Assembly (NCBI RefSeq): GCF_000018145.1
Contig: NC_009952.1
Span: 2,790,001-2,854,000, forward strand
Direction: 5' to 3'
Length of the DNA stretch: 64,000 nucleotides
Source: Dinoroseobacter shibae DFL 12 = DSM 16493
GTDB lineage: Bacteria > Pseudomonadota > Alphaproteobacteria > Rhodobacterales > Rhodobacteraceae
How positions within the stretch are numbered: position 1 is the stretch's first letter; each line of letters opens with the position of its first letter. The notes below the pieces were generated by a model, which saw nothing but the letters and a program-made list of their open reading frames with translations, made no database searches and was not told where the DNA came from. The translations under genes and the position numbers were made by a program. This document shows, one piece after another, positions 34,387-55,658 of the stretch.

Positions 34387-34430
34387 CCGCCCGCCGCCCC
34401 CCTGCGCCCCCGCCCGACATCCGGCGCCGA

Positions 34431-34452
34431 CAAGCGGTTTCGAAACCGCTTG
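34431..34452. repeat. TTCGAA-centred perfect palindrome, copy A1
   Basis: 22 bases: arm CAAGCGGTTTC and its exact reverse complement, no loop. 45 bases after the ATPase stop. Identical to copies at 34584 and 40645. No T-run follows, so it is not an ordinary intrinsic terminator. Confidence 0.85.
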
Positions 34453-34583
34453 ACCCCGCCCGGTCGCACCCGGAGGGCCCGGACTGCGCGCCGGATCGCG
34501 GGTCGCAGCGCCGCGCCCTCTTCCGGTTGCCAGACAGCCCGCCGCCACGGCCGCCTCGCGCCTGCGCCGGACGCACGCGCCAC

Positions 34584-34605
34584 CAAGCGGTTTCGAAACC
34601 GCTTG
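34584..34605. repeat. TTCGAA-centred perfect palindrome, copy A2
   Basis: 22 bases, identical to copy A1, 153 bases downstream of it (start to start), in the same gap between the ATPase and permease genes. Confidence 0.85.
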
Positions 34606-34761
34606 CGCGCCCTGGCCCCCAGCGGCCGAAGATCGCGGCCACCGCGCGCGCACCGCACCCCCGAGGGGCGCGCTGTCCCGCCGCGCGCGCCCCGCGCCCG
34701 ATCCGCATCGCAAGCTGTGGGCGTGCCTGTCGCGGCGTCCGTCCCCGGCCCCCGCGCCCGG

Positions 34762-34774
34762 ATTGTCAGACAAT
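34762..34774. promoter_or_regulatory. Inverted repeat ATTGTC-A-GACAAT, possible GntR-type operator
   Basis: A 13-base perfect dyad of the TTGTCnGACAA form often bound by FadR-subfamily GntR regulators. It lies 93 bases before the permease start and directly before a tandem repeat. No gntR gene is nearby. Confidence 0.4.
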
Positions 34775-34775
34775 G

Positions 34776-34819
34776 TGCCCGACACTTGCCCGACACTTGC
34801 CCGACACCTGCCCGACGCC
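34776..34819 (+). repeat. Four tandem 11-base units before the permease gene
   Basis: TGCCCGACACT twice, then TGCCCGACACC and TGCCCGACGCC. The 11-base period is about one helical turn, so the units face one side of the DNA. Function unknown. Confidence 0.8.
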
Positions 34820-34867
34820 GATCCGACCGGGTCTGGCGCGCCTTTTCGACGGTCGGAGCACGCGCCC

Positions 34868-35659
34868 ATGAGCCCCTATCTGATCGCCCTTTTCGCCATC
34901 GTCGAGCGCGAAGCCTTCCGCTTTTTGCAACAGCGCGAGCGCTTCGTCGCGGCCCTCGTGCGCCCCCTCGTCTGGCTGCTGGTCTTCGCCGCGGGCTTCC
35001 GCGCGGCCCTGGGACTCAGCATCATCCCGCCCTACCAGACCTACATCACCTACGAGGTCTACATCGTGCCCGGCCTGTGCGGAATGATATTGCTTTTCAA
35101 TGGGATGCAGTCGTCGCTCAGCCTCGTCTACGACCGGGAGATGGGCTCCATGCGCCTCCTGCTGACCTCGCCCCTGCCGCGCTGGTGGCTCCTGTTCTGC
35201 AAGCTCACGGGCGGCACCCTGATCTCCATCGCCCAGGCCTATGCGTTTCTCGCCATCGCCGCGCTTTTCGGCATCCAGATGCCCTGGCACGGCTACCTGC
35301 TGGCCTTTCCCGCGCTGCTCGTGGCGGGCCTGATGCTCGGCGCGCTCGGGCTGGCATTGTCGAGCTTTATCAAGCAGTTGGAGAATTTCGCCGGGGTGAT
35401 GAACTTCGTGATCTTCCCGATGTTCTTCCTCTCCTCCGCGCTCTATCCGCTGTGGAAAATGGCCGAAAGTTCCGAACTTCTGCATGACATCTGCGCGCTC
35501 AATCCGTTCACCCACGGGGTCGAGCTGATCCGCTTCGCGCTCTACGGCGAGCTGAACCTGCCCGCCCTGGGCTGGACCACGCTGGCCTGCGCGGGGTTCA
35601 TGGCGCTGGCGCTCTGGGGCTACGACCCGGCCCGCGGCATGATCAAGCGCAAGGGATGA
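34868..35659 (+). CDS. ABC-2 type permease of the PQQ alcohol dehydrogenase system (PedC/LutF-like)
   Basis: 263 residues and about six membrane helices. The string RPLVWLLVFAAGFRAALGLS is near residue 36 and the DREMGSMRLLLTSPLPRWWLL cytoplasmic loop (about 92-112) is typical of ABC-2 permeases. It should work with the ATPase at 33667. The start at 34868 (MSPYLIALFAIVERE) is chosen because earlier in-frame Met codons fall in the repeats. Confidence 0.88.
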   Translation: MSPYLIALFAIVEREAFRFLQQRERFVAALVRPLVWLLVFAAGFRAALGLSIIPPYQTYITYEVYIVPGLCGMILLFNGMQSSLSLVYDREMGSMRLLLTSPLPRWWLLFCKLTGGTLISIAQAYAFLAIAALFGIQMPWHGYLLAFPALLVAGLMLGALGLALSSFIKQLENFAGVMNFVIFPMFFLSSALYPLWKMAESSELLHDICALNPFTHGVELIRFALYGELNLPALGWTTLACAGFMALALWGYDPARGMIKRKG

Positions 35660-35705
35660 CCGAAGCCCCGGCCCCTGCTATCATGGCCCGAACCCTGGAG
35701 GCGCC

Positions 35706-36251
35706 ATGCGTACCATACCCCTGATTCTCTGTGCCTTTCTGGCCGGCCCCGCGCTGGCCGACGAAGCGGAGGTCGATCCCGGCGGCACCCTGAACCCCGA
35801 CGAGATGACCTGGCAATCCATGCTGGACCGCGCCGACCGGGGCGAGACCGACATGGTGCTCTGCGCCTCGGGCTACATGCTCACGAAGTCCGGCGACCAC
35901 GAGAACGCGCGCAAGATTTTCGAGAATTGCGCCGAGGCCGGCTATACCGGGGCGATGACCTGGATGAGCCAGCTCGACGACAACGGCCTCGGGGCCGACG
36001 AGAACCCGGATGCCGCCGCCGAGTGGAACCGCCGCGCCGCCGAGGCCGGGGATGCGGTCGGAAAACTCAACCATGGCATAGACTTGCTGCGCGGACGCGG
36101 GATCGCCAAGGATCCGATCAAGGGCCGCCGGATGGTGGACGAGGCCGCGGCCGAGGGCATCGTCGCCGCCCAGCGCCTGCGCGGCGCGGGCTATGATCTG
36201 GACGAGGTCACTCCCGACGCCGACAACTGGAAATACGCGCCCTTGTTCTGA
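35706..36251 (+). CDS. Secreted Sel1/TPR-like repeat protein
   Basis: 181 residues with a signal peptide (MRTIPLILCAFLAGPALA). Sel1-type helical repeats follow (NARKIFENCAEAGYTGAMTW, then DAAAEWNRRAAEAGDAVGKL and GRRMVDEAAAEGIVAAQRL). Sel1 proteins scaffold protein complexes; a role in the alcohol dehydrogenase system is suggested only by position. GGAGG precedes the ATG. Its last 61 bases overlap the end of the convergent ABC ATPase gene. Confidence 0.8.
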   Translation: MRTIPLILCAFLAGPALADEAEVDPGGTLNPDEMTWQSMLDRADRGETDMVLCASGYMLTKSGDHENARKIFENCAEAGYTGAMTWMSQLDDNGLGADENPDAAAEWNRRAAEAGDAVGKLNHGIDLLRGRGIAKDPIKGRRMVDEAAAEGIVAAQRLRGAGYDLDEVTPDADNWKYAPLF

Positions 36252-36943
36252 CGCTCCGCGCCCAGGGTCGCGGGGCTGCCGGTCAGGGCCACGATGCGCG
36301 AGGCGAGCATCTCCGCCTCCCGTTCCACATGGGTGACGAGGATCGTGGCCAGCCCCCGCGCCGCCCGAAGCCGGGCAAAGAGCACCATCATGTCCTCGGC
36401 CAGGTCCGGGTCGAGCGACACGAAAGGCTCGTCCATCAGCAGCACATCCGGGTCCGACCCGAAGGCCCGCGCCAGCGACAGCCGCCGCTGCTGGCCCAGG
36501 GACATCTGGGTCGGGTACTGTTTTTCCTGGGCCGAAAGTCCGACCTCGGCCAGCGCGCGCCGCGCGGCCTCGACCCCCAGCCCGGTGGACAGCCGGACAT
36601 TGTCCAGCGCCGACCGCCAGGGCAGCAGCGTCGGTTCCTGGAACACCATGGCCAGCCGCGGCGGCGTGGTCAGCCGACCGCGATAGCGCGACTCGAGCCC
36701 CGCGATGATCCGCAGCAGGGTGGATTTGCCGACCCCGGACGGCCCGGTGATGGCCAGGGTCTCCCCCGCGCGCACCTCCAGCGTCAGCGGCCCGAGGATC
36801 GGCGCGCCGGGCTCAAAGCCCATCTCCTGCAACTCGAGCCGGACAAGGGGCGCGCGCGGCTCGGCTTGCGCCCCCGCCGCGGTGCTGGCGTCGGTAGCCA
36901 CCCGCAGGGGCCGCCGATCAGCTTCCGGGCTGGACAAAGACAC
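36191..36943 (-). CDS. ABC ATP-binding protein (nitrate/sulfonate/taurine type)
   Basis: 250 residues. Walker A GPSGVGKST near residue 68, Q-loop FQEPTLLPWRSALDNV near 100, signature MSLGQQRRLSLARAF near 145, Walker B VLLMDEPFVSLDPDL near 165, and H-loop VTHVEREAEML. The relatives are SsuB/TauB. Its start overlaps the end of the substrate-binding protein gene by 26 bases, but no permease gene is in the unit. The final 20 codons overlap the Sel1-like gene tail to tail. Confidence 0.87.
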   Translation of the reverse strand: MSLSSPEADRRPLRVATDASTAAGAQAEPRAPLVRLELQEMGFEPGAPILGPLTLEVRAGETLAITGPSGVGKSTLLRIIAGLESRYRGRLTTPPRLAMVFQEPTLLPWRSALDNVRLSTGLGVEAARRALAEVGLSAQEKQYPTQMSLGQQRRLSLARAFGSDPDVLLMDEPFVSLDPDLAEDMMVLFARLRAARGLATILVTHVEREAEMLASRIVALTGSPATLGAERQNKGAYFQLSASGVTSSRS

Positions 36944-37889
36944 CCTCGGGCAACTCCGTGGCCGCGCCGAGCAGCTCTTCGCCCCCCAGTTCGGCCATCA
37001 GCTTGAGCATCCGGTTGGCCGCATCCTCGTCCACCGGACCCGGCGCCGGGATACCCGCGCGGAAGCCCGCCTTCAGGGCTTCGAATTCCGCATCGGTGTT
37101 GGCATTCATCCGGTCGCGCAGACGGTCCCATTCGGCGTCGTCGGAGGCCAACAGATCCTTGGCACTGCGCGACGCCGCCGCCAGGCCGCGCACGATTTCG
37201 GGGTGCTGGGCCAGCATCTCGCCGGTCAGCACGTAGCCCAGCAGCGGGGTCTCACTGTCCAGCCCGAGGGATTCCGCGGCATCGGTGACGCTGACCACCT
37301 GGCGCATGCCGGAGGCCCCCATCTTGGCCATGAAATGCCAGTAGTTGATCGCCCCGTCCAACTCCCCCTGCAGCGCGGTCTTGAAGATCAGCGGCGGCGC
37401 GCCGTAGACCTGCTCTGTCCCGGTCTTGAGATCGAGCCCATGGGCCTGCTTCGCGTAGGCCTGCAGGATCAGCCAGCTCTTGTCGAGCGGCCCGCCCGCG
37501 ATGCCGATCTTGCCCCCTTCGAGGTCAGCGAGCGACTGCACAGGGCTGTCTTCGGACACCATCACGCCGCCCACGGCCTTGGAGTAGGGCAGGAACACGT
37601 AGTCCTTGCCCGCGGCACGCTGCCGCGCCACCCAGAGCCAGTCCGACACGATCACGTCGGTCTCGCCGCCCTGGAATGCGACCTGGGCCGCGGACCCGCC
37701 GGCCACGCCGGTGACCTGCAACTCGAAGCCGTTGGCCGCATCGAACCCGTGATGCTTGATGGTGTCGAGTTCCCAGTTGACGGTGCCGAATTTCAGCACC
37801 TGTGCCCGCAGGACGGGTGTTTCGGCCAATGCGGCCACGGTGGTAATCGCAAGGGCCGCGACCCCGGCGCACAGCTTGGTCATGAACAT
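36918..37889 (-). CDS. ABC substrate-binding protein (NMT1/SsuA-like)
   Basis: 323 residues from the ATG at 37889, which follows GGGAGGGATC; the signal peptide is MFMTKLCAGVAALAITTVAALA. The fold is that of the taurine/sulfonate/thiamine-precursor binding proteins (LKFGTVNWELDTIKHHGFD near residue 32, GGETDVIVSDWLWVARQRA near 70). The ligand is unknown; the location in an alcohol-oxidation island suggests something linked to it, such as a cofactor. Two copies of the CTTTGGTCG element lie 51-92 bases upstream, reading toward this gene. Confidence 0.85.
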   Translation of the reverse strand: MFMTKLCAGVAALAITTVAALAETPVLRAQVLKFGTVNWELDTIKHHGFDAANGFELQVTGVAGGSAAQVAFQGGETDVIVSDWLWVARQRAAGKDYVFLPYSKAVGGVMVSEDSPVQSLADLEGGKIGIAGGPLDKSWLILQAYAKQAHGLDLKTGTEQVYGAPPLIFKTALQGELDGAINYWHFMAKMGASGMRQVVSVTDAAESLGLDSETPLLGYVLTGEMLAQHPEIVRGLAAASRSAKDLLASDDAEWDRLRDRMNANTDAEFEALKAGFRAGIPAPGPVDEDAANRMLKLMAELGGEELLGAATELPEGVFVQPGS

Positions 37890-37939
37890 GATGATCCCTC
37901 CCGGATTTGCCACACTCTACCAAGGCGCGCAGGGGGTGA

Positions 37940-37981
37940 AATACGACCAAAGCGTCATCCCGAATACGACCAAAGCGTCAT
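37940..37981 (-). promoter_or_regulatory. Direct repeat of a 19-base element (CTTTGGTCG box)
   Basis: Plus-strand AATACGACCAAAGCGTCAT occurs exactly twice, at 37940-37958 and 37963-37981, a 23-base period (about two helical turns). Read toward the substrate-binding protein gene each unit is ATGACGCTTTGGTCGTATT. The copy nearest the gene continues TTCACCCC, aligning with TTTACTCC after the single copy at 30842. Likely a binding site for the local response regulator. Confidence 0.65.
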
Positions 37982-38063
37982 TCAAAGGGTGCCGTGATTT
38001 GACATACCTCATTCTTCGAAGCGGGGCTCCGGCTTAGGCTTCCCGCAAGCAATGGAGGACGAC

Positions 38064-38483
38064 ATGACCCGAATACTCACCGCCGCAGCCCTGGGCCTGA
38101 CGATGCTGGCACCGGCTGCGCAGGCAGGTCCGGCAACATTCGAACAAGTCAAGATCGACGCGGGCGCGGCGCTCTACGAGGCCGAGTGCCGCCGCTGCCA
38201 TGCCCCGGACAGCGACCATGAAAGCTATGGTCCCCCGCTGAACAATATCGTGGGGCGCGCGGCCGGGATCGTCGAGGATTACGACTATTCCATCGCGCTC
38301 GAAGCCTCGGGCATCGTCTGGACCCCGGCCGCCCTGCGCGCCTGGATGGAAGACAATGACGGCTTCATGCCCGGCACCAAGATGCGCCATGTGGGCATCG
38401 AGGACCGCACCGTGCAGGATTTCATCATCGCCTATCTGACCAGCATCTCCGATGTCGAGATGAACCAGTCGCTGGACAAGTAG
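38064..38483 (+). CDS. Small c-type cytochrome upstream of the alcohol dehydrogenase
   Basis: 139 residues with a signal peptide (MTRILTAAALGLTMLAPAAQA). The haem site is CRRCH near residue 47, and the distal Met is in FMPGTKM near 113. Its class I fold resembles cytochrome c550 (ExaB-like). Placed directly ahead of the PQQ dehydrogenase on the same strand, it is a likely electron acceptor. GGAGG lies before the ATG at 38064. Confidence 0.9.
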   Translation: MTRILTAAALGLTMLAPAAQAGPATFEQVKIDAGAALYEAECRRCHAPDSDHESYGPPLNNIVGRAAGIVEDYDYSIALEASGIVWTPAALRAWMEDNDGFMPGTKMRHVGIEDRTVQDFIIAYLTSISDVEMNQSLDK

Positions 38484-38510
38484 CCCCGACATCCTGTCCG
38501 ATCTCGCACG

Positions 38511-38534
38511 CGGCGGCCCCTGGGTCGCCGTTTT
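38511..38534 (+). terminator. Intrinsic terminator after the small cytochrome
   Basis: CGGCGGCCC and GGGTCGCCG pair with one G-U, then TTTT follows. It separates the cytochrome transcript from the alcohol dehydrogenase promoter. Confidence 0.65.
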
Positions 38535-38780
38535 GCGTGTTAGGGGTGGGAATTTGCCGGCACAAGGCGCGCCGGGCGCGACCCAGCCCTGCGACTTTGG
38601 TCGGCAGAAACGGGTCCGGAGGAGCATGATCCGCTTGTATGGGGACCCAAAGATGCATCTAAAATACGGGTTACGACTATTGTGCAATAGGTGCGCGTGC
38701 GGATTCTGGGGGACAAACGGCCCAGAGGAGTCCCCGCTGCTCGGGGATCTTAGGGACAGTAACACCATGGAGGAAACCGC
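38535..38780 (+). promoter_or_regulatory. Leader and promoter region of the alcohol dehydrogenase
   Basis: No gene seen. CTTTGGTCG at 38595-38603 is a shorter match to the island element. A less GC-rich stretch (about 38640-38690) has TATTG-TG-CAATA. GGAGGAAA at 38769-38776 is a strong ribosome site. Confidence 0.4.
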
Positions 38781-40547
38781 ATGAATCGGTTTATTGCCGC
38801 TGTAACCGCTGCCGTTGTCGCGACAGGCGCGGCCTACGCAGAAGGCATCACGGAACAAGACCTGGCCAATGACCAGGCGGATACGAGTCGCGTGCTGACC
38901 AACGGCATGGGCCGCCACCTGCAGCGCTACTCGCCGCTCGAGACGCTCAACAAGGACAACGTGGAAAACCTGGTTCCGGCCTGGGCCTTCAGCCTCGGCG
39001 GGGAAAAGCAGCGCGGACAGGAAACTCAGCCGCTCATCTATGACGGGATCATGTACATCACCGGCTCCTACAGCCGCGTCTATGCGATCGACGTCGAGAC
39101 CGGCAAGGAGATCTGGCAGTACGACGCGCGTCTGCCCGAAGGCATCCTGCCCTGCTGTGACGTGATCAACCGCGGCGGCGCCATCTATGGCGACAAGTTC
39201 TACTTCGGCACGCTCGATGCCCGCATCGTGGCGCTCGACCTGAAGACCGGCGACGTGGTCTGGCGCAAGAAGATCGACGATTACAAGGCGGGCTATTCCT
39301 ACACGGCCGCCCCGCTGATCGTGAACGGCCTCGTGGTCACCGGCAACTCCGGCGGCGAGTTCGGCATCGTCGGCGCGGTCGAAGCCCGCGACGCGGAAAC
39401 CGGCGAGCTGGTCTGGAAGCGTCCGGTGATCGAAGGTCACATGGGAGAGTTGAACGGCGAGCCGTCCACCATGACCGGCACGCTGAACGCGACCTGGCCG
39501 GGCGACATGTGGAAAACCGGCGGCGGGGCGACCTGGCTCGGCGGCTCCTATGACGCGCGCACCGACACGCTGATCTTCGGCACGGGCAACCCAGCGCCCT
39601 GGAACAGCCACCTGCGCGGTGCGGGCAAGCCGTCCGAGGACGGAATGGGCGACAACCTCTATGCCGCCTCGCGTCTCGGGATCGATCCGGCCACCGGCGA
39701 GATCAAGTGGCATTTCCAGACCACCCCCCGGGAAGGCTGGGACTTCGACGGCGTGAACGAAGTCGTCGCCTATGACGACCGCGAGGGCAACCCGCGCCTG
39801 GCAACCGCCGACCGCAACGGCTTCTTCTACGTGCTGGATGCCGCGGATGGCAGCTTCGTGTCGGGCATGCCCTTCGTGGAGCAGATCAGCTGGGCCTCGG
39901 GCCTCGACGAGAACGGGCGTCCGATCTTCGTGGAGGAAAACCGTCCGGGCGATCCGGCCGAGGCCGCCGACGGCAAGAAGGGGGAGACGGTCTTCGCGGT
40001 TCCGGGCTTCCTGGGCGGCAAGAACTGGATGCCCATGGCCTACAGCCAGCGCACCGGCAACTTCTACGTGCCCGCCAACGAATGGGGCATGGATATCTGG
40101 AACGAGCCGATCACCTACAAGAAAGGGGCCGCCTATCTGGGCTCCGGCTTTACCATCAAGCCGCTCTTCGAGGACCATATCGGCGCGATCAAGGCGATCG
40201 ACCCGGACACGATGGAAACCAAGTGGGTCTACAAGAACGACGCACCGCTCTGGAGCGGCGTGATGACCACGGCCGGTGGCCTGGTGTTCTTCGGCACCCC
40301 GGAGGGCGAGTTCATCGCGCTCGACGACGAGACCGGCGAGAAGCTCTGGTCCTTCCAGACCGGCTCCGGCATCGTCGGCCAGCCCATCACCTGGGAACAG
40401 GATGGGGAGCAGTATGTCTCGGTCATCTCCGGCTGGGGCGGCGCGGTTCCGCTCTGGGGCGGCGAAGTGGCCAAGAAGGTCAACTACCTCAACCAGGGGG
40501 GGATGCTCTGGACCTTCCGCCTGCCCAAGCAGTACGCGGCCAACTAA
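38781..40547 (+). CDS. PQQ-dependent alcohol dehydrogenase, ExaA/PedH type with lanthanide signature
   Basis: 588 residues, signal peptide 1-20, then an eight-bladed quinoprotein propeller. The adjacent cysteines C125-C126 form the vicinal disulfide over PQQ. The catalytic Asp is D321 in [11 protein letters not shown], and D323 two residues on is the extra acidic ligand that marks lanthanide-dependent enzymes (calcium enzymes have Ala, Ser or Thr there). Overall similarity is to PedE/PedH ethanol-type enzymes rather than MxaF. It oxidises primary alcohols or aldehydes in the periplasm. PQQ synthesis genes are not in the window. A strong terminator follows. Confidence 0.93.
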
Positions 40548-40573
40548 GGCAACCTGCCACTGCAACTCACGCG

Positions 40574-40602
40574 ACGCGCGCCCCATCCGGGCGCGCGTTT
40601 TG
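40574..40602 (+). terminator. Intrinsic terminator of the alcohol dehydrogenase gene
   Basis: A 10-bp stem, ACGCGCGCCC with GGGCGCGCGT, loop CATCC, followed by TTTG. Confidence 0.85.
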
Positions 40603-40644
40603 CGTTCGACCGGAGCCCGGGCGCAGGCGGGCAGCACCGCGGAC

Positions 40645-40666
40645 CAAGCGGTTTCGAAACCGCTTG
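40645..40666. repeat. TTCGAA-centred perfect palindrome, copy B1
   Basis: 22 bases, identical to copies A1 and A2 although about 6 kb away. About 45 bases after the terminator of the alcohol dehydrogenase gene. Confidence 0.85.
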
Positions 40667-40710
40667 ACCCGCCCCGCGTCGGCATCTGCGCCCGGCCCGG
40701 GGAGGGGGCC

Positions 40711-40730
40711 AAGCGGGCGCGCGCCCGCTT
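40711..40730. repeat. GC-centred perfect palindrome, copy B2
   Basis: AAGCGGGCGCGCGCCCGCTT, a 20-base perfect palindrome that shares the AAGCGG outer arm with copies A1, A2 and B1 but has a GC core in place of TTTCGAAA. It abuts the next palindrome with no spacer. Confidence 0.8.
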
Positions 40731-40750
40731 ACGCGTTTTCGAAAACGCGT
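40731..40750. repeat. TTCGAA-centred perfect palindrome, copy B3
   Basis: ACGCGTTTTCGAAAACGCGT, a 20-base perfect palindrome. With the preceding one it makes a continuous 40-base double palindrome. Confidence 0.85.
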
Positions 40751-40904
40751 GCCCGCGCCAGGCCCCGCCGGATTGCATCGAAACCCGGTCCATGAGACCA
40801 ATGGCTTGGTTTCCAGCACAGGTTTTTCACCTATGCTCGACCCACTCGAGAACGCGCACCAGACGCGGGGGCGCGGCACATACCGCAGGGAGACACACGG
40901 GCAC

Positions 40905-41591
40905 ATGACCTCGCCAGTCGCATTCCGAAGCGCGATGATCGTGGACGATCATCCCCTCTTTCTCGATGCGCTCTCCATGACCTTGCGAACGGTCTCCGAC
41001 ATCGACGAGATCGCGACTGCGGACACGATGGAATCCGCTCTGTCCCAACTGGATGGCGCCACACCGGATGTGATCGTGCTCGACCTGAACCTGCCGGACG
41101 TGAACGGGCTCGACGGGTTGATCCGGCTCAAGACCGCTGTCCCCTCCACCCCGGTGGTGGTCGTCTCGTCCATGGCCGACAACCGGATGATCACCTCGAC
41201 CCTGCGCGTGGGCGCCTCGGGCTTCGTGCCCAAGCACTCCAAGCGCGAAGTCTTCCGCGAAGCCTTCGACGCGATCCAGAACGGCACGGTCTTCACCCCC
41301 GAGAACTACGTGCCCAACACCGATGCCGACAGCCCCCAGAACAACGCCGAGGAAGCGCTCGCACGGCTCGGCCTGCTGACCAAGCAGCAGGCCCGCATCC
41401 TGCAGCTGATCTGCGCCGGCAAGCTGAACAAGCAGATCGCCTATGACCTGTCCATCGCCGAGACGACCGTGAAGGCCCATGTCACCGCGATCATGCGCAA
41501 GCTGGGGGTCCAGAGCCGGACGCAGGCGGTTTTGATTGCACAGGAGGCGAATTTCGCCAATTTTGTGGCGAGCGACAATACGTTGGCCTGA
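40905..41591 (+). CDS. LuxR/NarL-family response regulator next to the PQQ dehydrogenase
   Basis: 228 residues. The receiver domain has acidic residues D14-D15 and the phospho-acceptor D60 (VIVLDLNLPDVNG). A linker follows and then a LuxR-type helix-turn-helix (about 160-215: LTKQQARILQLICAGKLNKQ and ETTVKAHVTAIMRKLGVQSR). Such regulators (PedR, AgmR/ErbR) activate quinoprotein alcohol dehydrogenase genes in pseudomonads, and the position just after the dehydrogenase supports that role. Likely partner: the hybrid kinase at 42817. Confidence 0.9.
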   Translation: MTSPVAFRSAMIVDDHPLFLDALSMTLRTVSDIDEIATADTMESALSQLDGATPDVIVLDLNLPDVNGLDGLIRLKTAVPSTPVVVVSSMADNRMITSTLRVGASGFVPKHSKREVFREAFDAIQNGTVFTPENYVPNTDADSPQNNAEEALARLGLLTKQQARILQLICAGKLNKQIAYDLSIAETTVKAHVTAIMRKLGVQSRTQAVLIAQEANFANFVASDNTLA

Positions 41592-41645
41592 TACGGGGCG
41601 ACGACGAGGGCCGCACCGAAGACGGCCCATGGGAGGGGACCACAG

Positions 41646-42845
41646 ATGCTCAGCTCGCCGGAGACCGCGGCGCAGCCCGTCGTGCAGGCCAGCGTGCTCT
41701 GCACGGACCCGGATCCGGTGGACACGCTCTGCGCGGCCCTCGGCGCCGAGCCTCTCGCCCTCGTCATCCTGTTCGTCAGCCCCTCCACCGATTTCGGCGA
41801 GGTGATCCGGGCCGCCAGCGCGCGGTTCGGCGAGACCCCCGTGCTGGCCTGCACCACCGCGGGCGAGATTTCGGCCCAGGGGTACACCGAGGACGAGATC
41901 GTCGCGGTCGGCCTGCCATCGCGGCATTTCGCCATCGAGACCATGCTGATCGACACGCTCGAAGAGATCGACTCCCAGGAATTGATCGGGCGCACGATCC
42001 GGCGGCGGCAATCGCTGATGCGGCTTGCACCCGACTGGCAGAACGAGTTCGCCTTCCTGATGATCGACGGGCTGTCGCTGAAGGAGGATGAGCTGGCCTT
42101 CGGGCTGGCCACGGGGCTCGGTCCCGTGCCGCTCTTCGGCGGGTCCGCCGGGGACGGCGCGCGGTTCGAGGAAACCTTCGTCGCGCTCAACGGCATCGCC
42201 TACCAGGACGCGGCGATCGTCACCTTCGTGCGCACCCGCTGCCCGGTGCGGGTCTTCAGCCTCGACCACCTGCGGCCCACGGACCGGCGGATGGTGGTGA
42301 CCGGGGCCGACCCGAGCCGCCGCATCGTGCGCACGCTCAATGCCGCGCCCGCCGCCCGGGAATACGCCCGTATCCTGGGCAAGGATCCCGAGCAGCTCGG
42401 CCCCTTCACCTTCGCCGCCCACCCGGTGGTGGTCACCATCGGCGGCACCCACCATGTGCGCGCGATCCAGCAGGTGACCGAACAGGGCGACCTGGTGTTC
42501 TTTTCCGCCATCGACGAGGGGCTGGTGCTGACCCTGGCCGAGCCCGACCACCTGGTCGAGCATCTCGAACGGGAATTCCAGGCCCTGTCGGCCGAGGTCA
42601 AACCGGCCGCCATCATCGCCTGCGACTGCATCCTGCGGCGGCTGGAGGCCGGTCAGAAGCAGCTTCTGGGCCGCATGTCGAACACGCTGGCCGAGCATTG
42701 CGTTGTCGGCTTTTCAACCTATGGTGAACAACTGAACGCAATGCACGTGAATCATACCATGACCGGGGTGGCGATCTATCCACCGCCGCCGGAAGATGGT
42801 GAGGCCGGGAGCCTGCATGACCGACTGGCTGATCGACCCGAATGA
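41646..42845 (+). CDS. FIST-domain sensory protein
   Basis: 399 residues. FIST N domain (about 20-220; ALVILFVSPSTDFGEVI, TPVLACTTAGEISAQGY, GLGPVPLFGGSAGDG) and FIST C domain (about 240-370; NTLAEHCVVGFSTYGEQLNAMHVNHT). FIST proteins are thought to bind small ligands such as amino acids or fatty acids and often sit next to signalling genes. Here the last 29 bases overlap the start of the hybrid kinase, so it may be the kinase input module. No membrane segment. Confidence 0.9.
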   Translation: MLSSPETAAQPVVQASVLCTDPDPVDTLCAALGAEPLALVILFVSPSTDFGEVIRAASARFGETPVLACTTAGEISAQGYTEDEIVAVGLPSRHFAIETMLIDTLEEIDSQELIGRTIRRRQSLMRLAPDWQNEFAFLMIDGLSLKEDELAFGLATGLGPVPLFGGSAGDGARFEETFVALNGIAYQDAAIVTFVRTRCPVRVFSLDHLRPTDRRMVVTGADPSRRIVRTLNAAPAAREYARILGKDPEQLGPFTFAAHPVVVTIGGTHHVRAIQQVTEQGDLVFFSAIDEGLVLTLAEPDHLVEHLEREFQALSAEVKPAAIIACDCILRRLEAGQKQLLGRMSNTLAEHCVVGFSTYGEQLNAMHVNHTMTGVAIYPPPPEDGEAGSLHDRLADRPE

Positions 42846-45545: not shown

Positions 45546-45567
45546 CCCCCACCGGAGACCCCTTCCC

Positions 45568-48797: not shown

Positions 48798-49207
48798 CCC
48801 GCAAGGACCGGGGAGGGGTTGCGCCGCGCTATGCGCGTCGCCGGGGTTTCACGAGGTATTGCGCCGCGCTGACGCGCGTCGCCGGGGCGGGGGCTCCGCC
48901 CCGCCGCCATTGTCGCTCGGACCAATGGCGCGCCAATGACGGCCCCCGGAGTATTTGGACAAAGATGAAGCAGACGGTGGGCGCTCGCCGGTGCCGTCGC
49001 CGCGCCTGTCGCGCCGGGCAAGCGCGCCCGCGCATCCTGGCGCTCACCCGGACCGGCGCTGCGACTACCCGCCCCCGACAGGGGGCGGGCCGGGCCCAAC
49101 GGGAGGCGCTGCGCCCGGCAGTGTGCGGCAACGACGGGCGGGAGCCCCCAGAACCGCGAGAGCGGCCAAGAGCCGCCGGAGACGGCCCTGAAGGCGCCCG
49201 GGCCGAC
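48798..49207. other. Gene-free GC-rich gap with direct repeats and hairpins
   Basis: 410 bases between convergent ybbP and gcvP with no credible gene. They hold a 28/29-base direct repeat, a hairpin at 48884-48902 (GGGGCGG/CCGCCCC), a motif CCCCGGAGTATTTGGACAAA near 48943 and a 9-bp stem CCCGCCCCC-GACA-GGGGGCGGG at 49068-49089. The last could terminate gcvP, but no T-run follows. Confidence 0.6.
48819..48887 (+). repeat. Two near-identical direct repeats of 28-29 bases
   Basis: 48819-48846 and 48859-48887 both read TTGCGCCGCGCT, then a short variable part (AT or GAC), then GCGCGTCGCCGGGG. Separated by 12 bases, 40-base period. Each unit contains an inverted GCGC element. Confidence 0.75.
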
Positions 49208-52072
49208 CTATTCCGCCGGTTCGGCGTAGTCTTCGACCGGCGGGCAGGTGCACACCAGGTTGCGGTCGCCATAGGCGTTGTCCACCCGGTTCACCGGCGG
49301 CCAGTACTTGTCGACCCGGAACGCGCCCGGCGGGTAGCAGGCCTGCTCGCGGCTATAGGGGCGGTCCCAGTCGCCCACCAGATCCTCGACCGTGTGCGGC
49401 GCGCGCTTGAGCGGGTTGTTCTCCGCATCCAGGCTGCCCGCGGCAATCGCATCCGCCTCCTCGCGGATCGCGAGCATCGCGTCACAGAACCGGTCGAGCT
49501 CGGCCTTGGGCTCGGACTCGGTCGGCTCCACCATCAGCGTCCCCGCCACGGGCCAGCTCATGGTCGGCGCGTGAAAGCCGCAATCCATCAGCCGCTTGGC
49601 CACGTCCTCCACGGTCACGCCCGCGATCTTGTCCAGAACCCGCGTGTCGAGAATGCACTCATGCGCCACCCGCCCCTTGTCGTTGGCATAGAGGATCGGG
49701 AAGCCCGCGCTCAGCCGCTTGGCCATGTAATTGGCGTTCAGGATCGCCACCTTGGTCGCCTGGGTCAGCCCCGCGCCCCCCATCAAGAGGCAATAGGCGT
49801 AGGAGATCGTCAGGATCGACGGGCTGCCATAGGCCGCCGACGCCACCGCCCCCGCGTCGCCGAACCCCGCGCCCGTGGCCGTCGCATGGCTCGGCAGATG
49901 CGGGGCGAGATGCGCCTTCACCCCGATCGGCCCCATGCCGGGACCGCCGCCGCCATGGGGGATGCAGAAGGTCTTGTGCAGGTTCAGGTGGCTCACATCG
50001 CCGCCCAGATCGCCCGGGGCCGACAGCCCCACCATGGCGTTCATGTTGGCCCCGTCGATATAGACCTGCCCGCCATGGGCATGGGTGATGTCGCAGACCT
50101 CGCGCACGATCTCCTCGAACACCCCGTGGGTCGAGGGATAGGTGATCATGCAGCCGGCGAGGTTTTCCGAATGCTGCTCGGCCTTGGCGCGGAAATCCTC
50201 CAGGTCGATATCGCCGTTCTCGGCGGATTTCACCACGACGACCTTCCAGCCGACCATCTGCGCGCTGGCGGGGTTGGTGCCATGGGCCGAGGTCGGGATG
50301 AGGCAGATATTGCGATGTCCCTCGCCCCGCGCCCGGTGATAGCCGCGAATGGCCAGAAGGCCCGCATATTCCCCCTGCGCGCCGGAATTGGGCTGCATCG
50401 ACATCGCGTCATAGCCCGTCACATCGCACAGCATCTGCGACAGCTCGGCGATCATCTCGTGATAGCCCGCCGCCTGGTCCGCGGGCGCGAACGGGTGCAG
50501 GTTGGCAAACTCCGGCCAGGTGAGCGGCAGCATCTCGACCGTCGCGTTCAGCTTCATGGTGCACGACCCCAGCGGGATCATCGCCCGGTCCAGCGCCAGG
50601 TCCCGGTCCGCCAGACGCCGCATGTAGCGGGTCATCTCCGCCTCGGCGCGGTTCATGTGGAAGATCGGGTGGGTCATGTAGCTGCTCTCGCGCAGCATCT
50701 CCTGGGGCAGGTGATAGACCATCCGGGTCTTGTCATAGACCATGCCCTCGGCCCCGAAGGCGCGCCAGACCGCCTCGATGGTGCGGCCCAGGGTCAGCTC
50801 GTCCAGGGTGATCCCGATCCGGTCCGTGCCGACCTTGCGCAGGTTGACGCCCTCGCGCAGGGCGGCGGCGAGGATCACGCCCTGCATCGACCCCACCTTG
50901 ACCGTGATCGTGTCGAAATAGTCCTGCGGGTCCACCTTGAAGCCCAGCTCGGTCAGCCCGTCGGCCATGCGCGCGGTTTTCCGGTGCACGGTCTGAGCGA
51001 TGGCCTTGAGCCCGTCGGGCCCGTGGAACACCCCGTACATGGACGCCATGACCGCCAGCAGCGCCTGCGCGGTACAGACGTTGGAATTGGCCTTCTCGCG
51101 GCGGATATGCTGCTCGCGCGTCTGGAGCGACAGCCGGTAGGCCTTGTTGCCGCGCGCATCCACCGACACCCCGATGATGCGGCCCGGCATGGACCGCTTC
51201 AGCGCGTCGGTGCAGGTCATGTAGGCCGCGTGCGGGCCGCCATATCCCATGGGCACGCCGAAACGCTGGGTCGAGCCGATGGCGATATCGGCCCCCATCT
51301 CGCCGGGGGATTTCAGCAAGGTCAGCGCCAGCGGGTCCGCGGCCACGACGGCCAGCGCGCGGGCGCCGTGCAAAGCCTCGATCACGTCGGAATAGTCGCG
51401 CACATGGCCATAGCTGCCCGGGTACTGGAAGAGCGCGGCAAAGACCGCCTCTGGGTCGAGCGCGTCGACCGCGCCCACGATCACCTCGATCCCCAGGGGC
51501 TCGGCCCTCGTGCGGATCACGTCGATGGTCTGGGGGTGGCAATCCTCGGCCACGAAGAAGCCGCGCGCCTTGGACTTCGACGCGCGCTGCGCCATGGCCA
51601 TAGCCTCGGCCGCCGCGGTGCCCTCGTCCAGCAGCGAGGCATTGGCGATTGGCAGCCCGGTCAGGTCCGCCATCATCGTCTGGAAGTTCAGCAGCGCCTC
51701 GAGCCGACCCTGGCTGATCTCGGGCTGGTAGGGGGTATAGGCCGTGTACCAGGCCGGGTTTTCCAGGATGTTGCGCAGGATCACCGGCGGCGTGTGCGTG
51801 CCGTGATAGCCCTGCCCGATCAGCGAGGTCAGGACCGTGTTCTTGTCCGCCAGCTCCCGCATCCGGTGCAGGGTGTCGCGCTCGCTCAGGGCCGGGCCGA
51901 AAGCCAGCGGATCACGCCGCCGGATGCCCTCGGGCAGCGCTTCGTTGATCAGCGCCTCCAGGGACGGCACGCCGAGCGTGGCGAGCATCTGTCCCATCTC
52001 CTTGGGCGAGGGGCCGATATGGCGGCGATTGGCGAAATCGTAGGGCGCGTAGTCCGTCAGCGAAAAACCCAT
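49208..52072 (-). CDS. gcvP: Glycine dehydrogenase (decarboxylating), P protein
   Basis: 954 residues, the single-chain type in which N- and C-terminal halves are fused. The pyridoxal-phosphate lysine is in [18 protein letters not shown] near residue 700; other family strings are [14 protein letters not shown] near 17 and [15 protein letters not shown] near 510. It decarboxylates glycine and loads the aminomethyl group onto lipoyl-GcvH. It follows gcvH on the same strand by 91 bases. Confidence 0.97.
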
Positions 52073-52163
52073 GGTGGTCTCCTTGCGCGAAGCGGCGGGG
52101 GCCTGAGGCGGGGTCGGGACCGCCTCGGGCGGGCGTATTTCCGGAACGATAAGGGGCGCGGCC

Positions 52164-52532
52164 TTACCCGATCAAGGCGGCGTAGCCCTCGGCATCCAGC
52201 AGCTCGGACAGCTCACCCGGATCGCTCAGCTTGATCTTGTAGAGCCAGGAATTGCCCTCCGGATCCTCGTTGAGTTCCGCGGGCGTCTCGACCAGCGCCG
52301 CGTTGGCCTCCAGAATCTCGCCCGTCACCGGGGCAAAGATGTCCGAGGCGGCCTTGACGCTCTCGACGACGCCGATCTCGTCGCCCTTGACGAAGGTCTC
52401 GCCCTCGGGCTGCAGCTCGATGAACACCACCTCGCCCAGTTGCTCGGCGGCGTGTTTGGTGATGCCGATGGTGGCCGTGTCATCCTCGACCTCGATCCAT
52501 TCGTGGTCATCGGTGTAGTATGTTGTGGGCAT
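52164..52532 (-). CDS. gcvH: Glycine cleavage system H protein
   Basis: 122 residues. The lipoyl-bearing lysine is in [14 protein letters not shown] near residue 65, and the family string [24 protein letters not shown] lies near the N-terminus. It carries the aminomethyl group between the P, T and L proteins. 13 bases after gcvT; operon order is gcvT-gcvH-gcvP. Confidence 0.97.
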
Positions 52533-52545
52533 CGCGCGGGGCCTT

Positions 52546-53631
52546 TCAACGTTTATAGCGGTGCGGAACGAAGGGGAGCGGGGTGACCGTTGCGGGCTGG
52601 GGCTTGCCGCGCAGGATCACGTGGATCTCGGTGCCGGGGGCGGCGTGGCTGGCGGTCACGTAGCCCATGGAGATCGGCGCCTGGAGCGTGGGGGCGAACC
52701 CGCCGCTGGTCACGGTGCCGAGCGGTGTGCCGTCGGGCGCGGTGATCTCGACGCCCGCACGCACGGGCGCGCGCCCCTCGGGGCGCAGGCCGACCAGCCG
52801 GCGGGCGGGACCGTCGGCCAGCTCGCCCAGGATCCGCGCGGCACCCGGGAAGCCCCCCTCGGCGCGGCGGCGCTTCGGGATCGAGAACCCCAGCCCCGCC
52901 TCGGGCGGCGAGGTGCCCTGGTCGATATCCTGGCCGTAAAGCGGCAGGCCCGCCTCCATCCGCAGGGTGTCGCGCGCGCCCAGCCCGGCGGGCATGGCCC
53001 CCCCGGCGATCAGCGCCCGGGCGAAGGCCTCCGCCGCGGTGGCGGGCAGGGAGATCTCGAACCCGTCCTCGCCGGTATAGCCCAGCCGCGACAGGCGCAG
53101 ATCCTGTCCGTCCCACGCCGCCTGCGCGCTCTGCATGAAGCGCAGATCCTCCGCCGCGGGCACCAGCCCGGCCACCAGCGCGGCTGCCGCGGGGCCCTGC
53201 ACGGCGATCAGGGCGTGGTCCTCGATGACCCGAAGGGTGCAATCGGGCAGCCCCGCGCGCAGCAGGCCCACGTCCTGGTCCGCCATGGAGGCGTTGGCCA
53301 CCACATAGAGCCCCCCGGGATCGCGGGTCACGATCAGGTCGTCATAGATCCCCCCCGCCCCGGTGGTCAGCTGGGTATAACGCGCCTGCCCGGGGGCGAG
53401 GCTGGTGATGCCGCCGGGCACCAGCCGCTCCAGGGCGGCGGCCGGGTCGTCGCCGGTGATCTCCATCTGGCACATGTGGCTGACATCGAACAGGGCGGCG
53501 CCTTCGCGGCAGGCGGCATGCTCGGCCATGATGCCCGTGGGGTACTGCACGGGCATCTCCCACCAGGCGAAGGGCACCATCTTTGCGCCTAACTCAAGAT
53601 GTAGGGGGTGCAGCGGCGTTTTCTTCAACAT
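52546..53631 (-). CDS. gcvT: Aminomethyltransferase, glycine cleavage T protein
   Basis: 361 residues from the ATG at 53631 (MLKKTPLHPLHLELGAKMVP); an ATG nine codons upstream is possible. Folate-binding strings: MPVQYPTGIMAEHAACREGAALFDVSHM split around residues 30-55, GYTGEDGFEI near 190 and LGARDTLRMEAGLPLYG near 225. It transfers the one-carbon unit to tetrahydrofolate and releases ammonia. First gene of the operon. I looked for a glycine riboswitch upstream and saw none. Confidence 0.96.
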   Translation of the reverse strand: MLKKTPLHPLHLELGAKMVPFAWWEMPVQYPTGIMAEHAACREGAALFDVSHMCQMEITGDDPAAALERLVPGGITSLAPGQARYTQLTTGAGGIYDDLIVTRDPGGLYVVANASMADQDVGLLRAGLPDCTLRVIEDHALIAVQGPAAAALVAGLVPAAEDLRFMQSAQAAWDGQDLRLSRLGYTGEDGFEISLPATAAEAFARALIAGGAMPAGLGARDTLRMEAGLPLYGQDIDQGTSPPEAGLGFSIPKRRRAEGGFPGAARILGELADGPARRLVGLRPEGRAPVRAGVEITAPDGTPLGTVTSGGFAPTLQAPISMGYVTASHAAPGTEIHVILRGKPQPATVTPLPFVPHRYKR

Positions 53632-53823
53632 GGGGCGCTTTCCGAGGTGAGTCGCCAAGGGGACATCCGTGCCGGTTTCCTATCGGAAACACGCCCCCCC
53701 GTGCAAGCCGGGAAGGCGGGCGCGGCGAAATATCCGCCTGCCCGAGCCGACTACCGCGCCTTTGGCGCTTGCATCCGCCCGCGGCCCGCGCCCATCCTGA
53801 TCCGAACCACGTCCGGAGGCCCC
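53632..53823. promoter_or_regulatory. Divergent gcvT/galM promoter region
   Basis: 192 bases with a 6-bp hairpin GTTTCC-TATC-GGAAAC at 53675-53690 and a run of seven C just after it. It should hold promoters in both directions. GGAGG before 53824 is the galM ribosome site. Confidence 0.4.
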
Positions 53824-54828
53824 ATGTCCGCAGAAATCACCCCGTTCGGGAAGACCGCCCAAGGCACGCAGGTCCACGCGATCACCCTCGCCAGCGACGC
53901 GTTGCGGGTGACGCTGCTGACCTGGGGCGCGGTGATCCAGGATGTGCGCCTGACCGGGGTGGCGCAGCCGCTGACCCTCGGGACCGCGGATCTGGCCGCC
54001 TATGCCGGGGCGATGAACAGCTTCGGCGCGCTGATGGGGCCGGTTGTGAACCGGATCAAGGGGGCCGCCGCCCCGATCGCGGGCCAGCGCCACGCCTTCG
54101 AGGCCAATCTCGACGGCGCCCATACCAAGCATGGCGGCAGCCACGGGCCGCAATACCGGGTCTGGCACCTGCTGGAGAGCAGCCCGACCCATGCCCTGCT
54201 GGAGACGGTGCTGCAGGACGGGCTGTCGGGCTTTCCCGGCAACCGCACCCTGCGCGCCGAGTACCGGGTGAACGGCGCCGATCTGGACCTGGTGGTGATC
54301 GGCACCACGGACGCCCCGACCCTGATGAACATCGCCAATCACAGCTACTGGAACCTCGACGGCTCCGACAGCATCGCGGGCCATACGCTGCAGATCGCCG
54401 CGGACAGGGTGACGGTGAACGGCGACGACCTGATGGTCACGGGCGAGGTCATGGCGGTGGCGGGCACCCGGTTCGACTTCCGCAGGCCCCGCGCGTTCGA
54501 CCCGGGCCCCGAGAACCGGTTCGACCTGAATTACGTGCTGGCCGATGCCAAGCGGCCCCTGAGCCATGCCTGCACCCTGACCGGCACCTCCGGCGTGCAG
54601 ATGGAGATGTCCACCACCGAGCCGGGGTTGCAGGTCTTCGATCTGGGCACCTTCACCACCGCGCCCCATCCGGGCCATGCGGGCACGCCCTATCCGCGCT
54701 TCGCGGCCATCGCGCTCGAGGCGCAGGGCTGGCCCGACGCGGCGAACCATGCGGGCTTCCCGCCGATCGAGATCGGCCCCGATCACCCCTATCACCAGCA
54801 CACGCGCTGGCGGTTCCGCCGCCCCTGA
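53824..54828 (+). CDS. galM: Aldose 1-epimerase (mutarotase)
   Basis: 334 residues. Family strings: NRIKGAAAPIAGQRHAFE near residue 78, HGGSHGPQYRVWH near 105 (active His), NIANHSYWNLDG near 172 (second active His) and the late IALEAQGWPDAANHAGFPP with the catalytic Glu. It interconverts alpha and beta aldose anomers. The start at 53824 is preceded by GGAGG. Divergent from gcvT; its 3' end lies in a tandem duplication. Confidence 0.93.
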   Translation: MSAEITPFGKTAQGTQVHAITLASDALRVTLLTWGAVIQDVRLTGVAQPLTLGTADLAAYAGAMNSFGALMGPVVNRIKGAAAPIAGQRHAFEANLDGAHTKHGGSHGPQYRVWHLLESSPTHALLETVLQDGLSGFPGNRTLRAEYRVNGADLDLVVIGTTDAPTLMNIANHSYWNLDGSDSIAGHTLQIAADRVTVNGDDLMVTGEVMAVAGTRFDFRRPRAFDPGPENRFDLNYVLADAKRPLSHACTLTGTSGVQMEMSTTEPGLQVFDLGTFTTAPHPGHAGTPYPRFAAIALEAQGWPDAANHAGFPPIEIGPDHPYHQHTRWRFRRP

Positions 54829-54882
54829 CACCCGCCGCGCCGCTCGTCCGCCCCTGACACCCGCCGCGCCGCTCGTCCGCCC
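54819..54882 (+). repeat. Tandem 29-base duplication at the galM stop
   Basis: Units 54819-54847 and 54848-54876 are identical and start CCGCCCCTGACACCCGCCGC; six bases of a third copy follow. The first unit carries the galM stop (TGA at 54826), so the second is a copy of the gene end plus its flank. Confidence 0.85.
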
Positions 54883-54909
54883 TGCGGGCGTCCTCGCGCG
54901 GCCCGGGGC

Positions 54910-55275
54910 TCAGCTGCCGCGATAGGTGGAGAACGAGAAGGGCGAGAGCAGCAGCGGCACATGGTAATGCGCCCCCGGATCGCTCATCCCGAAGCGGATC
55001 GGGATCTCGTCGAGAAACAGCGGCTCCGCCCCCGCCTGCCCGGTGTCGCGCAGGTAGTCGCCCGCATGAAACAGCAGCTCGAACACGCCGGTGCGGAACT
55101 CAGCTTGGGGCAGGATCGGGCCATCGGTGCGCCCGTCGCTATTGGTGTGCTTGGCGGCGACCACCTCGCGCATGGTCCCGTCCAGCCGGTAGAGCACGAT
55201 ATGCATCCCCGCCGCCGGCACGCCCCGCGCGGTGTCGAGCACATGGGTGGTCAGATAACCTGTGTCTTGCGCCAT
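54910..55275 (-). CDS. uraH: 5-hydroxyisourate hydrolase (transthyretin-like)
   Basis: 121 residues. N-terminal LTTHVLDTARGVPAAGM with the active His (residue 11), Arg in DGRTDGPIL, and His in GAHYHVPLLLSPFSFSTYRGS; the C-terminal Y-R-G-S tetrapeptide is the enzyme signature. It hydrolyses 5-hydroxyisourate to OHCU in urate breakdown. No other urate genes are in the window. Downstream is the galM tail. Confidence 0.95.
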   Translation of the reverse strand: MAQDTGYLTTHVLDTARGVPAAGMHIVLYRLDGTMREVVAAKHTNSDGRTDGPILPQAEFRTGVFELLFHAGDYLRDTGQAGAEPLFLDEIPIRFGMSDPGAHYHVPLLLSPFSFSTYRGS

Positions 55276-55515
55276 GGCGCTCCCCTTCCTGTGGTCCCGA
55301 GGCGGCTCCGCGGCAGACCGCCGCCACAGCGCTCCGGCCCGAGGATCGGGTCACGCGCCGCGCCGGTGCAGCCCCTGCGGATCGCCTGGCAGTAGGCGCA
55401 ATTCCGACCCCGAAGGGAAGGGAAATCTTGCCCCCCGCACCGCGCCAGGGGCAGGGACAACGGGCCCCGGGCGGGACGCCTCGCGCAGGCGCAGGCGCGC
55501 GCTCGGCCACCGGGC

Positions 55516-55537
55516 CAACGATCTTCGAAGATCGTTG
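55516..55537. repeat. TTCGAA-centred perfect palindrome, copy C1
   Basis: 22 bases: arm CAACGATCTTC and its exact reverse complement. Preceded by GCCACCGGGC, as is copy C2. Confidence 0.85.
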
Positions 55538-55636
55538 CCGCGCCCGGCCCAGGCCTCTGGTCACGATGCCCGGACCAGCACCGGACCGCGCCGCACGCGC
55601 AGCGCCCGGCCCGACGCGCGCCACCTGCCACCGGGC

Positions 55637-55658
55637 CAACGGTCTTCGAAGACCGTTG
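55637..55658. repeat. TTCGAA-centred perfect palindrome, copy C2
   Basis: 22 bases: arm CAACGGTCTTC and its exact reverse complement, 11 bases after the GAPDH stop. It differs from C1 by one base in each arm; the two changes compensate and keep the palindrome perfect. Confidence 0.85.

What the first reader, a model, noticed from the sequence alone, without database searches (positions are those of the whole stretch)
34431..55658. A family of perfect 20-22 bp palindromes, mostly centred on TTCGAA, clustered in three gene-free gaps
Seen in sequence: five 20-22 bp perfect palindromes with TTCGAA at the centre, plus a companion with a GC core. They occupy three gaps only: two in 34387-34867, three in 40548-40904 and two in 55276-55669. 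(Three of the TTCGAA copies are the identical 22-mer, so the TTCGAA total is six positions: 34431, 34584, 40645, 40731, 55516, 55637.) C1 and C2 differ by one base per arm with both sides changed together, which points to selection on symmetry. There is no loop and no T-run, so they are not ordinary terminators. They may bind a dimeric protein, form cruciforms, be methylation-sensitive sites or be mobile palindromic elements.
Basis: partly seen in the sequence, partly recalled or inferred. Interest (0 to 1): 0.78.

Follow-up and report, generated by a model that had tools for sequence, protein, structure and literature searches.

The report
Self-complementary hairpin elements at gene ends
Short perfect DNA palindromes that a reader noticed in one stretch of a marine bacterium belong to a large family of hairpin-forming elements placed mostly just behind genes, found in a number of related bacteria, whose arms change sequence but nearly always stay self-complementary.

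Summary
The genome (one contig 100% identical to Dinoroseobacter shibae plasmids) holds 80 sites of CAA-N5-TTCGAA-N5-TTG (control 0). Anchoring only on AAG-N4-TTNNAA-N4-CTT, all four free pairs are complementary in 88 of 92 intergenic sites in the stretches read and in 226 of 230 in loci from related Rhodobacteraceae. Units form twins 85-153 bp apart, arms identical in 22 of 27, or ~95-bp arrays of four hairpins at ~24-bp pitch (31 found). They lie behind stop codons and avoid divergent gaps. A twin fills a 188-bp gap between lexA and comEC, which overlap in 13 of 17 relatives. At orf69-trpB arrays are kept across genera while hairpin sequences differ. One-sided (wobble) changes are nearly absent: 4 versus 133 two-sided cells. 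Best reading: a REP/BIME-like hairpin element marking gene ends, active on both strands; not a REP proper (perfect palindromes, no Y1 transposase found in this genome) and without the T-tail of intrinsic terminators. Mechanism and spread are unproven. A small uncharacterised protein family (orf69) is curiously linked to such hairpins.

The parts
34431..34452 (.). near palindrome of a twin (CAAGCGGTTTCGAAACCGCTTG), 44 bp behind the stop of the ABC-transporter ATPase gene 33667-34386
34453..34583 (.). 131-bp GC-rich spacer of the twin; the spacers share no motif or structure
34584..34605 (.). far palindrome of the twin, identical to the first
40645..40666. family palindrome, 97 bp behind the stop of the PQQ-dependent dehydrogenase gene 38781-40547 and downstream of a T-tailed terminator-like hairpin at about 40575-40601 (found by my scan; not listed by the stricter scan)
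40711..40730 (.). 20-bp palindrome with GC core (AAGCGGGCGCGCGCCCGCTT), abutting the next
40731..40750 (.). 20-bp palindrome ACGCGTTTTCGAAAACGCGT, 85 bp centre to centre from 40645
55516..55537 (.). far palindrome of a twin (CAACGATCTTCGAAGATCGTTG)
55538..55636 (.). 99-bp GC-rich spacer of the twin
55637..55658 (.). near palindrome (CAACGGTCTTCGAAGACCGTTG), 11 bp behind the stop of the glyceraldehyde-3-phosphate dehydrogenase gene (55670-56659, minus strand); differs from 55516 by one compensated base per arm

Best explanation
The palindromes are units of a dispersed gene-end element of Rhodobacteraceae: 20-22 bp hairpins, nearly all perfect, of the form (C)AAG-N4-TTNNAA-N4'-CTT(G), mostly with TTCGAA at the centre, laid down as twins around a 64-131 bp spacer or as arrays of two to five at a pitch of about 24 bp, mostly close behind stop codons and often between convergent genes (shown). 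I infer that each unit acts by intrastrand pairing, as a stem with a four-base loop, on both strands: a bidirectional 3'-end hairpin that stops or slows RNA polymerase or protects the 3' end of the mRNA, like E. coli REP/BIME elements. Arms drift in concert, through selection for pairing on both strands and perhaps helped by template-switch repair of imperfect palindromes (inferred). Elements are gained at new gene ends (well supported at lexA, less so at sufE) and can be kept for a long time (supported at orf69-trpB).
For: Anchor test that does not ask for complementarity: 88 of 92 (own genome, 1.214 Mb read) and 226 of 230 (related loci) intergenic sites have all four free pairs complementary. 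35-pair structure on 27 arrays: 97.4% of cells paired and 133 two-sided changes, against 80.2% and 30.7 in shuffles and at most 48.2% and 25 in slid versions. The centre need not be palindromic (27 of 396). Gene ends: 0 of 47 clusters inside called genes; divergent gaps 2 of 47 versus 162 of 571 of all gaps, convergent 18 of 47 versus 84 of 571; other species 3 of 109 versus 110 of 422 divergent. Within 30 bp of a stop: 36 of 45 against a null mean of 21.5. T-run terminators are scarce at gene ends with a unit within 35 bp: 1 of 45 versus 59 of 432; convergent 0 of 26 versus 26 of 134. Same gene junction with different but paired hairpins.
Against: No RNA data. G-U intermediates are nearly absent (4 of 944 cells), also in tandem gaps, where only one strand should matter as RNA (48 of 50 and 100 of 102 sites perfect); of six single mismatches one is G-U, four A-C, one C-C (sense unknown for one A-C). 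This fits a DNA-level or two-strand constraint better than mRNA pairing alone. Some units lie behind a T-tailed hairpin (28920, 40645). In the other species the scarcity of T-run terminators is not significant (12 of 95 versus 51 of 263, P 0.16). Seven of 135 clusters in other species fell inside called genes. Two of 11 carriers with the orf69-trpB junction lack the units there. The twin spacers have no explanation.
Confidence: 0.5

Rival explanations
1. Selfish mobile palindromes (REP- or MITE-like) copied by a transposase in trans; they sit behind genes only because insertion there does least harm.
For: Five arrays in this genome are 86-96% identical over 88-101 bp, in both orientations. lexA-comEC: gap 188 bp here, overlapping in 13 of 17 relatives; sufE: 187 bp here, overlapping in 6 of 17, or 6 of the 11 where the neighbour is the same.
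Against: No Y1 (IS200/RAYT) transposase found in this genome and in only 1 of 12 carriers. Twin spacers are unrelated to each other. The orf69-trpB site holds units in 9 of 11 carriers with that junction. No tight-pattern site on the plasmids (45 of 45 on the chromosome).
Confidence: 0.25
2. A duplex-DNA site or cruciform: bound by a dimeric protein, by gyrase at convergent gene ends, or extruded under supercoiling.
For: Two-strand symmetry almost without wobble; invariant or nearly invariant AAG/CTT and TT/AA positions in slots 1, 3 and 4; central CG or GC in 369 of 396; convergent gaps enriched.
Against: A dimer site would not need complementarity at the freely varying N4; some centres are not palindromic. 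Convergent gaps tend to positive supercoiling, which disfavours cruciforms (established knowledge, not tested).
Confidence: 0.15
3. The perfect symmetry is mutational: replication template switching keeps rewriting one arm from the other, so palindromes stay perfect without selection on pairing.
For: Hardly any one-sided changes; twin partners identical in 22 of 27 (permutation mean 7.5, maximum 14).
Against: Does not explain the fixed AAG/TTNNAA/CTT positions, the gene-end placement or the kept site at trpB.
Confidence: 0.1

Closest known systems
REP / BIME (PU) elements of enterobacteria (details recalled; passages of PMC2267715 mention gyrase and IHF binding, mRNA stabilisation and attenuation)
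   Same: Multi-copy hairpins outside genes, at 3' ends of transcription units, often paired
   Different: Perfect rather than imperfect palindromes; mostly CAAG...CTTG ends; arms vary but stay complementary; arrays of four at a 24-bp pitch; no Y1 transposase found in this genome
RIME (Rhizobium) and CIR (Caulobacter) intergenic elements (RIME recalled; CIR seen only as a mention and a reference in PMC10969869; the original paper is not held)
   Same: Alphaproteobacterial intergenic elements of about 100 bp or more with inverted repeats (recalled)
   Different: Sequences could not be compared here; no Rfam family matches the window's sites
Intrinsic transcription terminators
   Same: Hairpin close behind the stop codon; in this genome T-tailed terminators are scarce where a unit is near
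   Different: No T-run; symmetrical and so bidirectional; often in series
MITE/ERIC-like elements
   Same: Dispersed units of about 95-190 bp, apparently gained at gene ends
   Different: No long terminal inverted repeat; twin spacers share no sequence; target-site duplication not examined

Membership tests
REP/BIME | multi-copy extragenic palindromes near gene ends | tested here: met
REP/BIME | imperfect palindrome with GTAG/GGAG head (recalled definition) | tested here: not met
   outer bases are mostly CAAG...CTTG (slot 2 ACG...CGT) and the arms are perfect or nearly so
REP/BIME | RAYT (Y1_Tnp, PF01797) in the genome | tested here: not met
   own genome 0 matches; 1 of 12 carriers
Intrinsic terminator | hairpin close behind the stop codon | tested here: met
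   36 of 45 clusters within 30 bp
Intrinsic terminator | T-run directly after the stem | tested here: not met
   none of the window's seven palindromes
Intrinsic terminator | terminates transcription | not testable with these tools
   needs 3'-end mapping or reporters
RIME/CIR/Bru-RS alphaproteobacterial elements | sequence similarity to the described consensus | not tested
   consensus sequences not held; no Rfam match to the window's sites
MITE | terminal inverted repeats with conserved interior | tested here: inconclusive
   twin palindromes could serve as termini, but spacers are unrelated; five four-hairpin arrays are conserved throughout
MITE | target-site duplication | not tested
   borders of the gained stretches were not mapped

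The most novel reading that the evidence does not exclude
A gene-end hairpin system whose structure is kept and whose sequence is free, with a small protein family (orf69, about 69-84 aa, no Pfam or NCBIfam family at its cut-off) as its cognate partner: each paralogue would recognise its own hairpin class, found behind its gene and dispersed behind other genes, and so set 3' ends or spread the elements without a classical transposase.
Probability: 0.12. Interest if true: 0.85.

Novelty: new variant of a known kind. Interest (0 to 1): 0.6.

Why it matters
It gives marine Rhodobacteraceae, including the model D. shibae, a REP-like gene-end element that I did not find in the literature searched, with very clear covariation and hardly any wobble intermediates. 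That makes two questions testable: how transcripts without T-tailed terminators end in GC-rich alphaproteobacteria, and whether palindromes stay perfect by selection or by templated mutation. The gained stretch at lexA and the kept site at trpB offer natural before-and-after comparisons.

Tried and rejected
Rfam: no match to any family in window 30000-60000 at E up to 1; in seven loci only a cobalamin riboswitch, ffh RNA and a tRNA reached the gathering score. RAYT/IS200 origin: no Y1_Tnp found in the genome. Homologous twin spacers: among 36 clusters compared with 60-bp flanks, matches of 60 bp or more occur only between five four-hairpin arrays, 10 of 10 (the full listing was cut in its middle). 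29 spacers share no k-mer above shuffles and fold no better than shuffles (mean z -0.2 and -0.05). Spacers captured from elsewhere: no convincing source in the loci held, which include a little over a quarter of the genome (loci L001-L025 left out of the print as repeats of own stretches; best E 7e-6 over 36 bp in another species, taken as chance). Strand-specific loop (GG against CC): no clear bias, few cases. Chromosome dimer site dif: the D. shibae dif is described as one 28-bp site at the terminus (passages of PMC7901474), whereas this family has 80 dispersed sites. orf69 fold: model with mean pLDDT 81.5, no solved structure at E <= 0.001, best 0.27, no sequence relative in the PDB below E 0.13; left open. 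Literature: searches gave no description (listings with titles and starts of abstracts seen); passages read in PMC7901474, PMC2267715 and PMC10969869. Only openly licensed PubMed Central papers are held, so a subscription paper could hold a description. Gene positions come from my own codon-model gene caller, which misses some genes and misplaces some starts.
Full report
WHAT WAS CHECKED. Seven perfect palindromes of 20 bp or more in 64 kb compare with 0.32 per window in first-order Markov sequence, at most 3 in one of 100 windows. The window is C1:2790001-2854000 of a 4.42-Mb genome; a 20-kb piece of its 190,506-bp contig is 100% identical to two Dinoroseobacter shibae plasmid records.

GENOME-WIDE FAMILY. 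The pattern CAANNNNNTTCGAANNNNNTTG has 80 places in the genome and 0 for the reversed control; five other genomes of the genus have 0, 0, 0, 0 and 1. A tighter form has 45 places, all on the chromosome; one 14-bp core, CGGTTTCGAAACCG, lies on contig C2. In 1.214 Mb read closely (59 stretches plus window, 34 of the stretches chosen around known sites), family palindromes of 18 bp or more form 47 clusters: 27 of two, 11 of one, 8 of three, 1 of four. None was listed in the 25 control stretches, 500 kb, but these had been placed where one search shows no tight-pattern site.

SYMMETRY. Anchoring only on AAG....TT..AA....CTT, without asking for complementarity between, 88 of 92 intergenic sites in this genome and 226 of 230 in related loci have all four free pairs complementary; independent letters would give under 1%. 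The related loci were fetched by a pattern that fixes two of the four pairs in one unit per locus. Inside called genes there were 0 sites here and 10 in the related loci, 9 of them fully complementary, which may be gene-calling errors. The centre is CG in 332, GC in 37, and GG, CC, TG, CA or TC in 27 of 396 intergenic TTNNAA hairpins with arms of at least 8, so arms rather than the whole palindrome are kept. Predicted RNA stems of six units have 8-9 pairs and a four-base loop, -8 to -14 kcal/mol.

ARCHITECTURE. Two arrangements occur. Twins: 85-153 bp from centre to centre; arms identical in 22 of 27 twins with TTCGAA centres, against a permutation mean of 7.5 and maximum of 14. The 29 spacers are 78% G+C and share no motif or structure; 53 convergent gaps without the family are 68% G+C. 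Arrays: four hairpins at centre distances of about 24, 23 and 25 bp; 31 four-unit and 17 three-unit arrays in the stretches and related loci. Slots of this genome's arrays that looked empty hold hairpins with GG or CC centres. Five arrays in this genome are 86-96% identical over 88-101 bp, in both orientations. The alignment of 27 arrays gives 97.4% paired cells, 21 of 35 pairs with two-sided changes and 133 such cells; shuffles give 80.2% and 30.7, slid versions at most 48.2% and 25. Arrays were chosen with at most one mismatch per hairpin, so the less biased test is. One-sided changes are only 4 of 944 cells.

PLACE. With home-made gene calls, 0 of 47 clusters lie inside genes; 2 of 47 lie in divergent gaps against 162 of 571 of all gaps of 60 bp or more (P 1e-4) and 18 of 47 in convergent ones against 84 of 571 (P 1.5e-4). 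In other species 7 of 135 clusters fell inside genes; of 109 with both neighbours, 3 are divergent against 110 of 422 (P 2e-9) and 52 convergent against 78 of 422 (P 3e-9). The nearest stop is within 30 bp in 36 of 45 (null mean 21.5, maximum 28) and in 81 of 106 (null mean 53.1, maximum 63); the null slides the cluster within its own gap. In tandem gaps 23 of 27 and 40 of 54 are nearer the upstream stop than the next start. Gene ends with a unit within 35 bp rarely have a T-run terminator in this genome: 1 of 45 against 59 of 432 (P 0.03), convergent 0 of 26 against 26 of 134 (P 0.009); in the other species the difference is not significant, 12 of 95 against 51 of 263. Where the unit is further off, a T-run hairpin can come first, as at about 40575-40601 in the window (5 of 16 here, 7 of 32 in others).

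GAIN AND KEEPING. lexA and comEC: gap 188 bp with a twin here, but -4 or -7 bp in all five genus relatives and -7 in 8 of 12 other family genomes, the rest being 10, 141, 261 and 588. sufE and its neighbour: 187 bp here; -4 in two genus relatives, 359 and 581 in two that seem to have an extra gene, another neighbour in one; -4 in three, -29 in one, 80-93 in three and not adjacent in five of 12 others, so gain is less certain there. At mlaC and trpE the relative G002 has gaps of 10 and 56 bp against 163 and 126 here; at fmt it has 129 against 104, which shows no gain. So at least at lexA the twin with its whole spacer appears to be an addition. Yet sites are also kept: 23 locus pairs, one of them within a single metagenome bin, share both flanks (all loci were fetched by one pattern, which favours this). 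In some the hairpins are nearly unchanged while the linkers differ (L148 and L153, one mismatch), in one a hairpin is broken (L081 against L162), in others number and sequence of hairpins differ. At the junction of a small gene (orf69) and trpB, 9 of 11 carriers with that junction, and D. shibae and five named loci (two of which look like the same genomes as carriers), have one to five family hairpins starting within about 25 bp of the orf69 stop, largely different between genera; the two other carriers lack TTNNAA units there. In seven genomes examined without array matches or with at most one pattern hit, orf69 was not found next to trpB and there were no such hairpins; an eighth (G001) gave no trpB. 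Some carriers were recognised by this very site.

DISTRIBUTION. A covariance model of the array finds 21 of 149 family genomes at E <= 0.001 (at most 27 candidates scored per genome, matches counted on both strands).

MECHANISM. Shown: the family, complementarity with free sequence, gene-end place, gain at one locus with a second likely, keeping at one junction. Inferred: action as intrastrand hairpins on both strands at transcript ends. The near absence of wobble, also in tandem gaps (48 of 50 and 100 of 102 perfect), speaks for a two-strand or DNA-level constraint, or for templated repair of the arms; I cannot separate these.

OPEN LEAD. orf69 paralogues are mostly followed by hairpins of other classes: 25 of 29 loci, 16 of them orthologues at trpB and not all independent, have at least one perfect hairpin within 60 nt of the stop and 14 have two or more, against 34 of 170 and 0 of 170 in the control stretches here, and 76 of 287 and 10 of 287 at other gene ends of the related loci. 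One such class, ATTCCATCCATGGAAT, occurs 11 times in G007, and its pattern 4 times in G046, but not in six other genomes; 9 of 10 places looked at are intergenic, mostly near a stop and beside a second hairpin. This may mean a cognate protein, or only that tandem gene-end hairpins are common in these bacteria. The AlphaFold2 model (mean pLDDT 81.5) matches no solved fold convincingly.

Noticed in passing
own genome, C1:246065, 1067468, 1783391, 2090806, 2123651, 2948130: A second palindrome family TGTTTCGC(AT or GC)GCGAAACA, 18 bp, six copies listed in the stretches read, none inside a called gene.
   Followed up: no
own genome, C1:24887 and 2949750: Perfect palindrome (A)AAACCTTCCCCGCGGGGAAGGTTT(T), 24-26 bp, in two intergenic places.
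   Followed up: no
L319 (C1:1064088-1064294 of the own genome), L320-L339: orf69, a small protein family without a Pfam or NCBIfam match at the cut-off, in the gene before trpB and as paralogues, mostly followed by hairpins.
   Followed up: partly
L340-L351 (G007, G046): Another tandem gene-end hairpin class, CAAATTCCATCCATGGAATTTG beside a second hairpin such as CAAAAATCTTCGAAGATTTTTG.
   Followed up: partly
L110, L117, L164: Palindromes with GTCGAC centre (for example ACGGCGCGTCGACGCGCCGT in L110 and L117) in the same kinds of loci, perhaps a sister class.
   Followed up: no
L030 16284-16335 and 16426-16561: A twin lies close to an Rfam ffh RNA, in what my gene calls make the same gap.
   Followed up: no
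own genome plasmids C2-C6: None of the 45 tight-pattern sites lies outside the chromosome, although the other contigs make up 14% of the genome.
   Followed up: no
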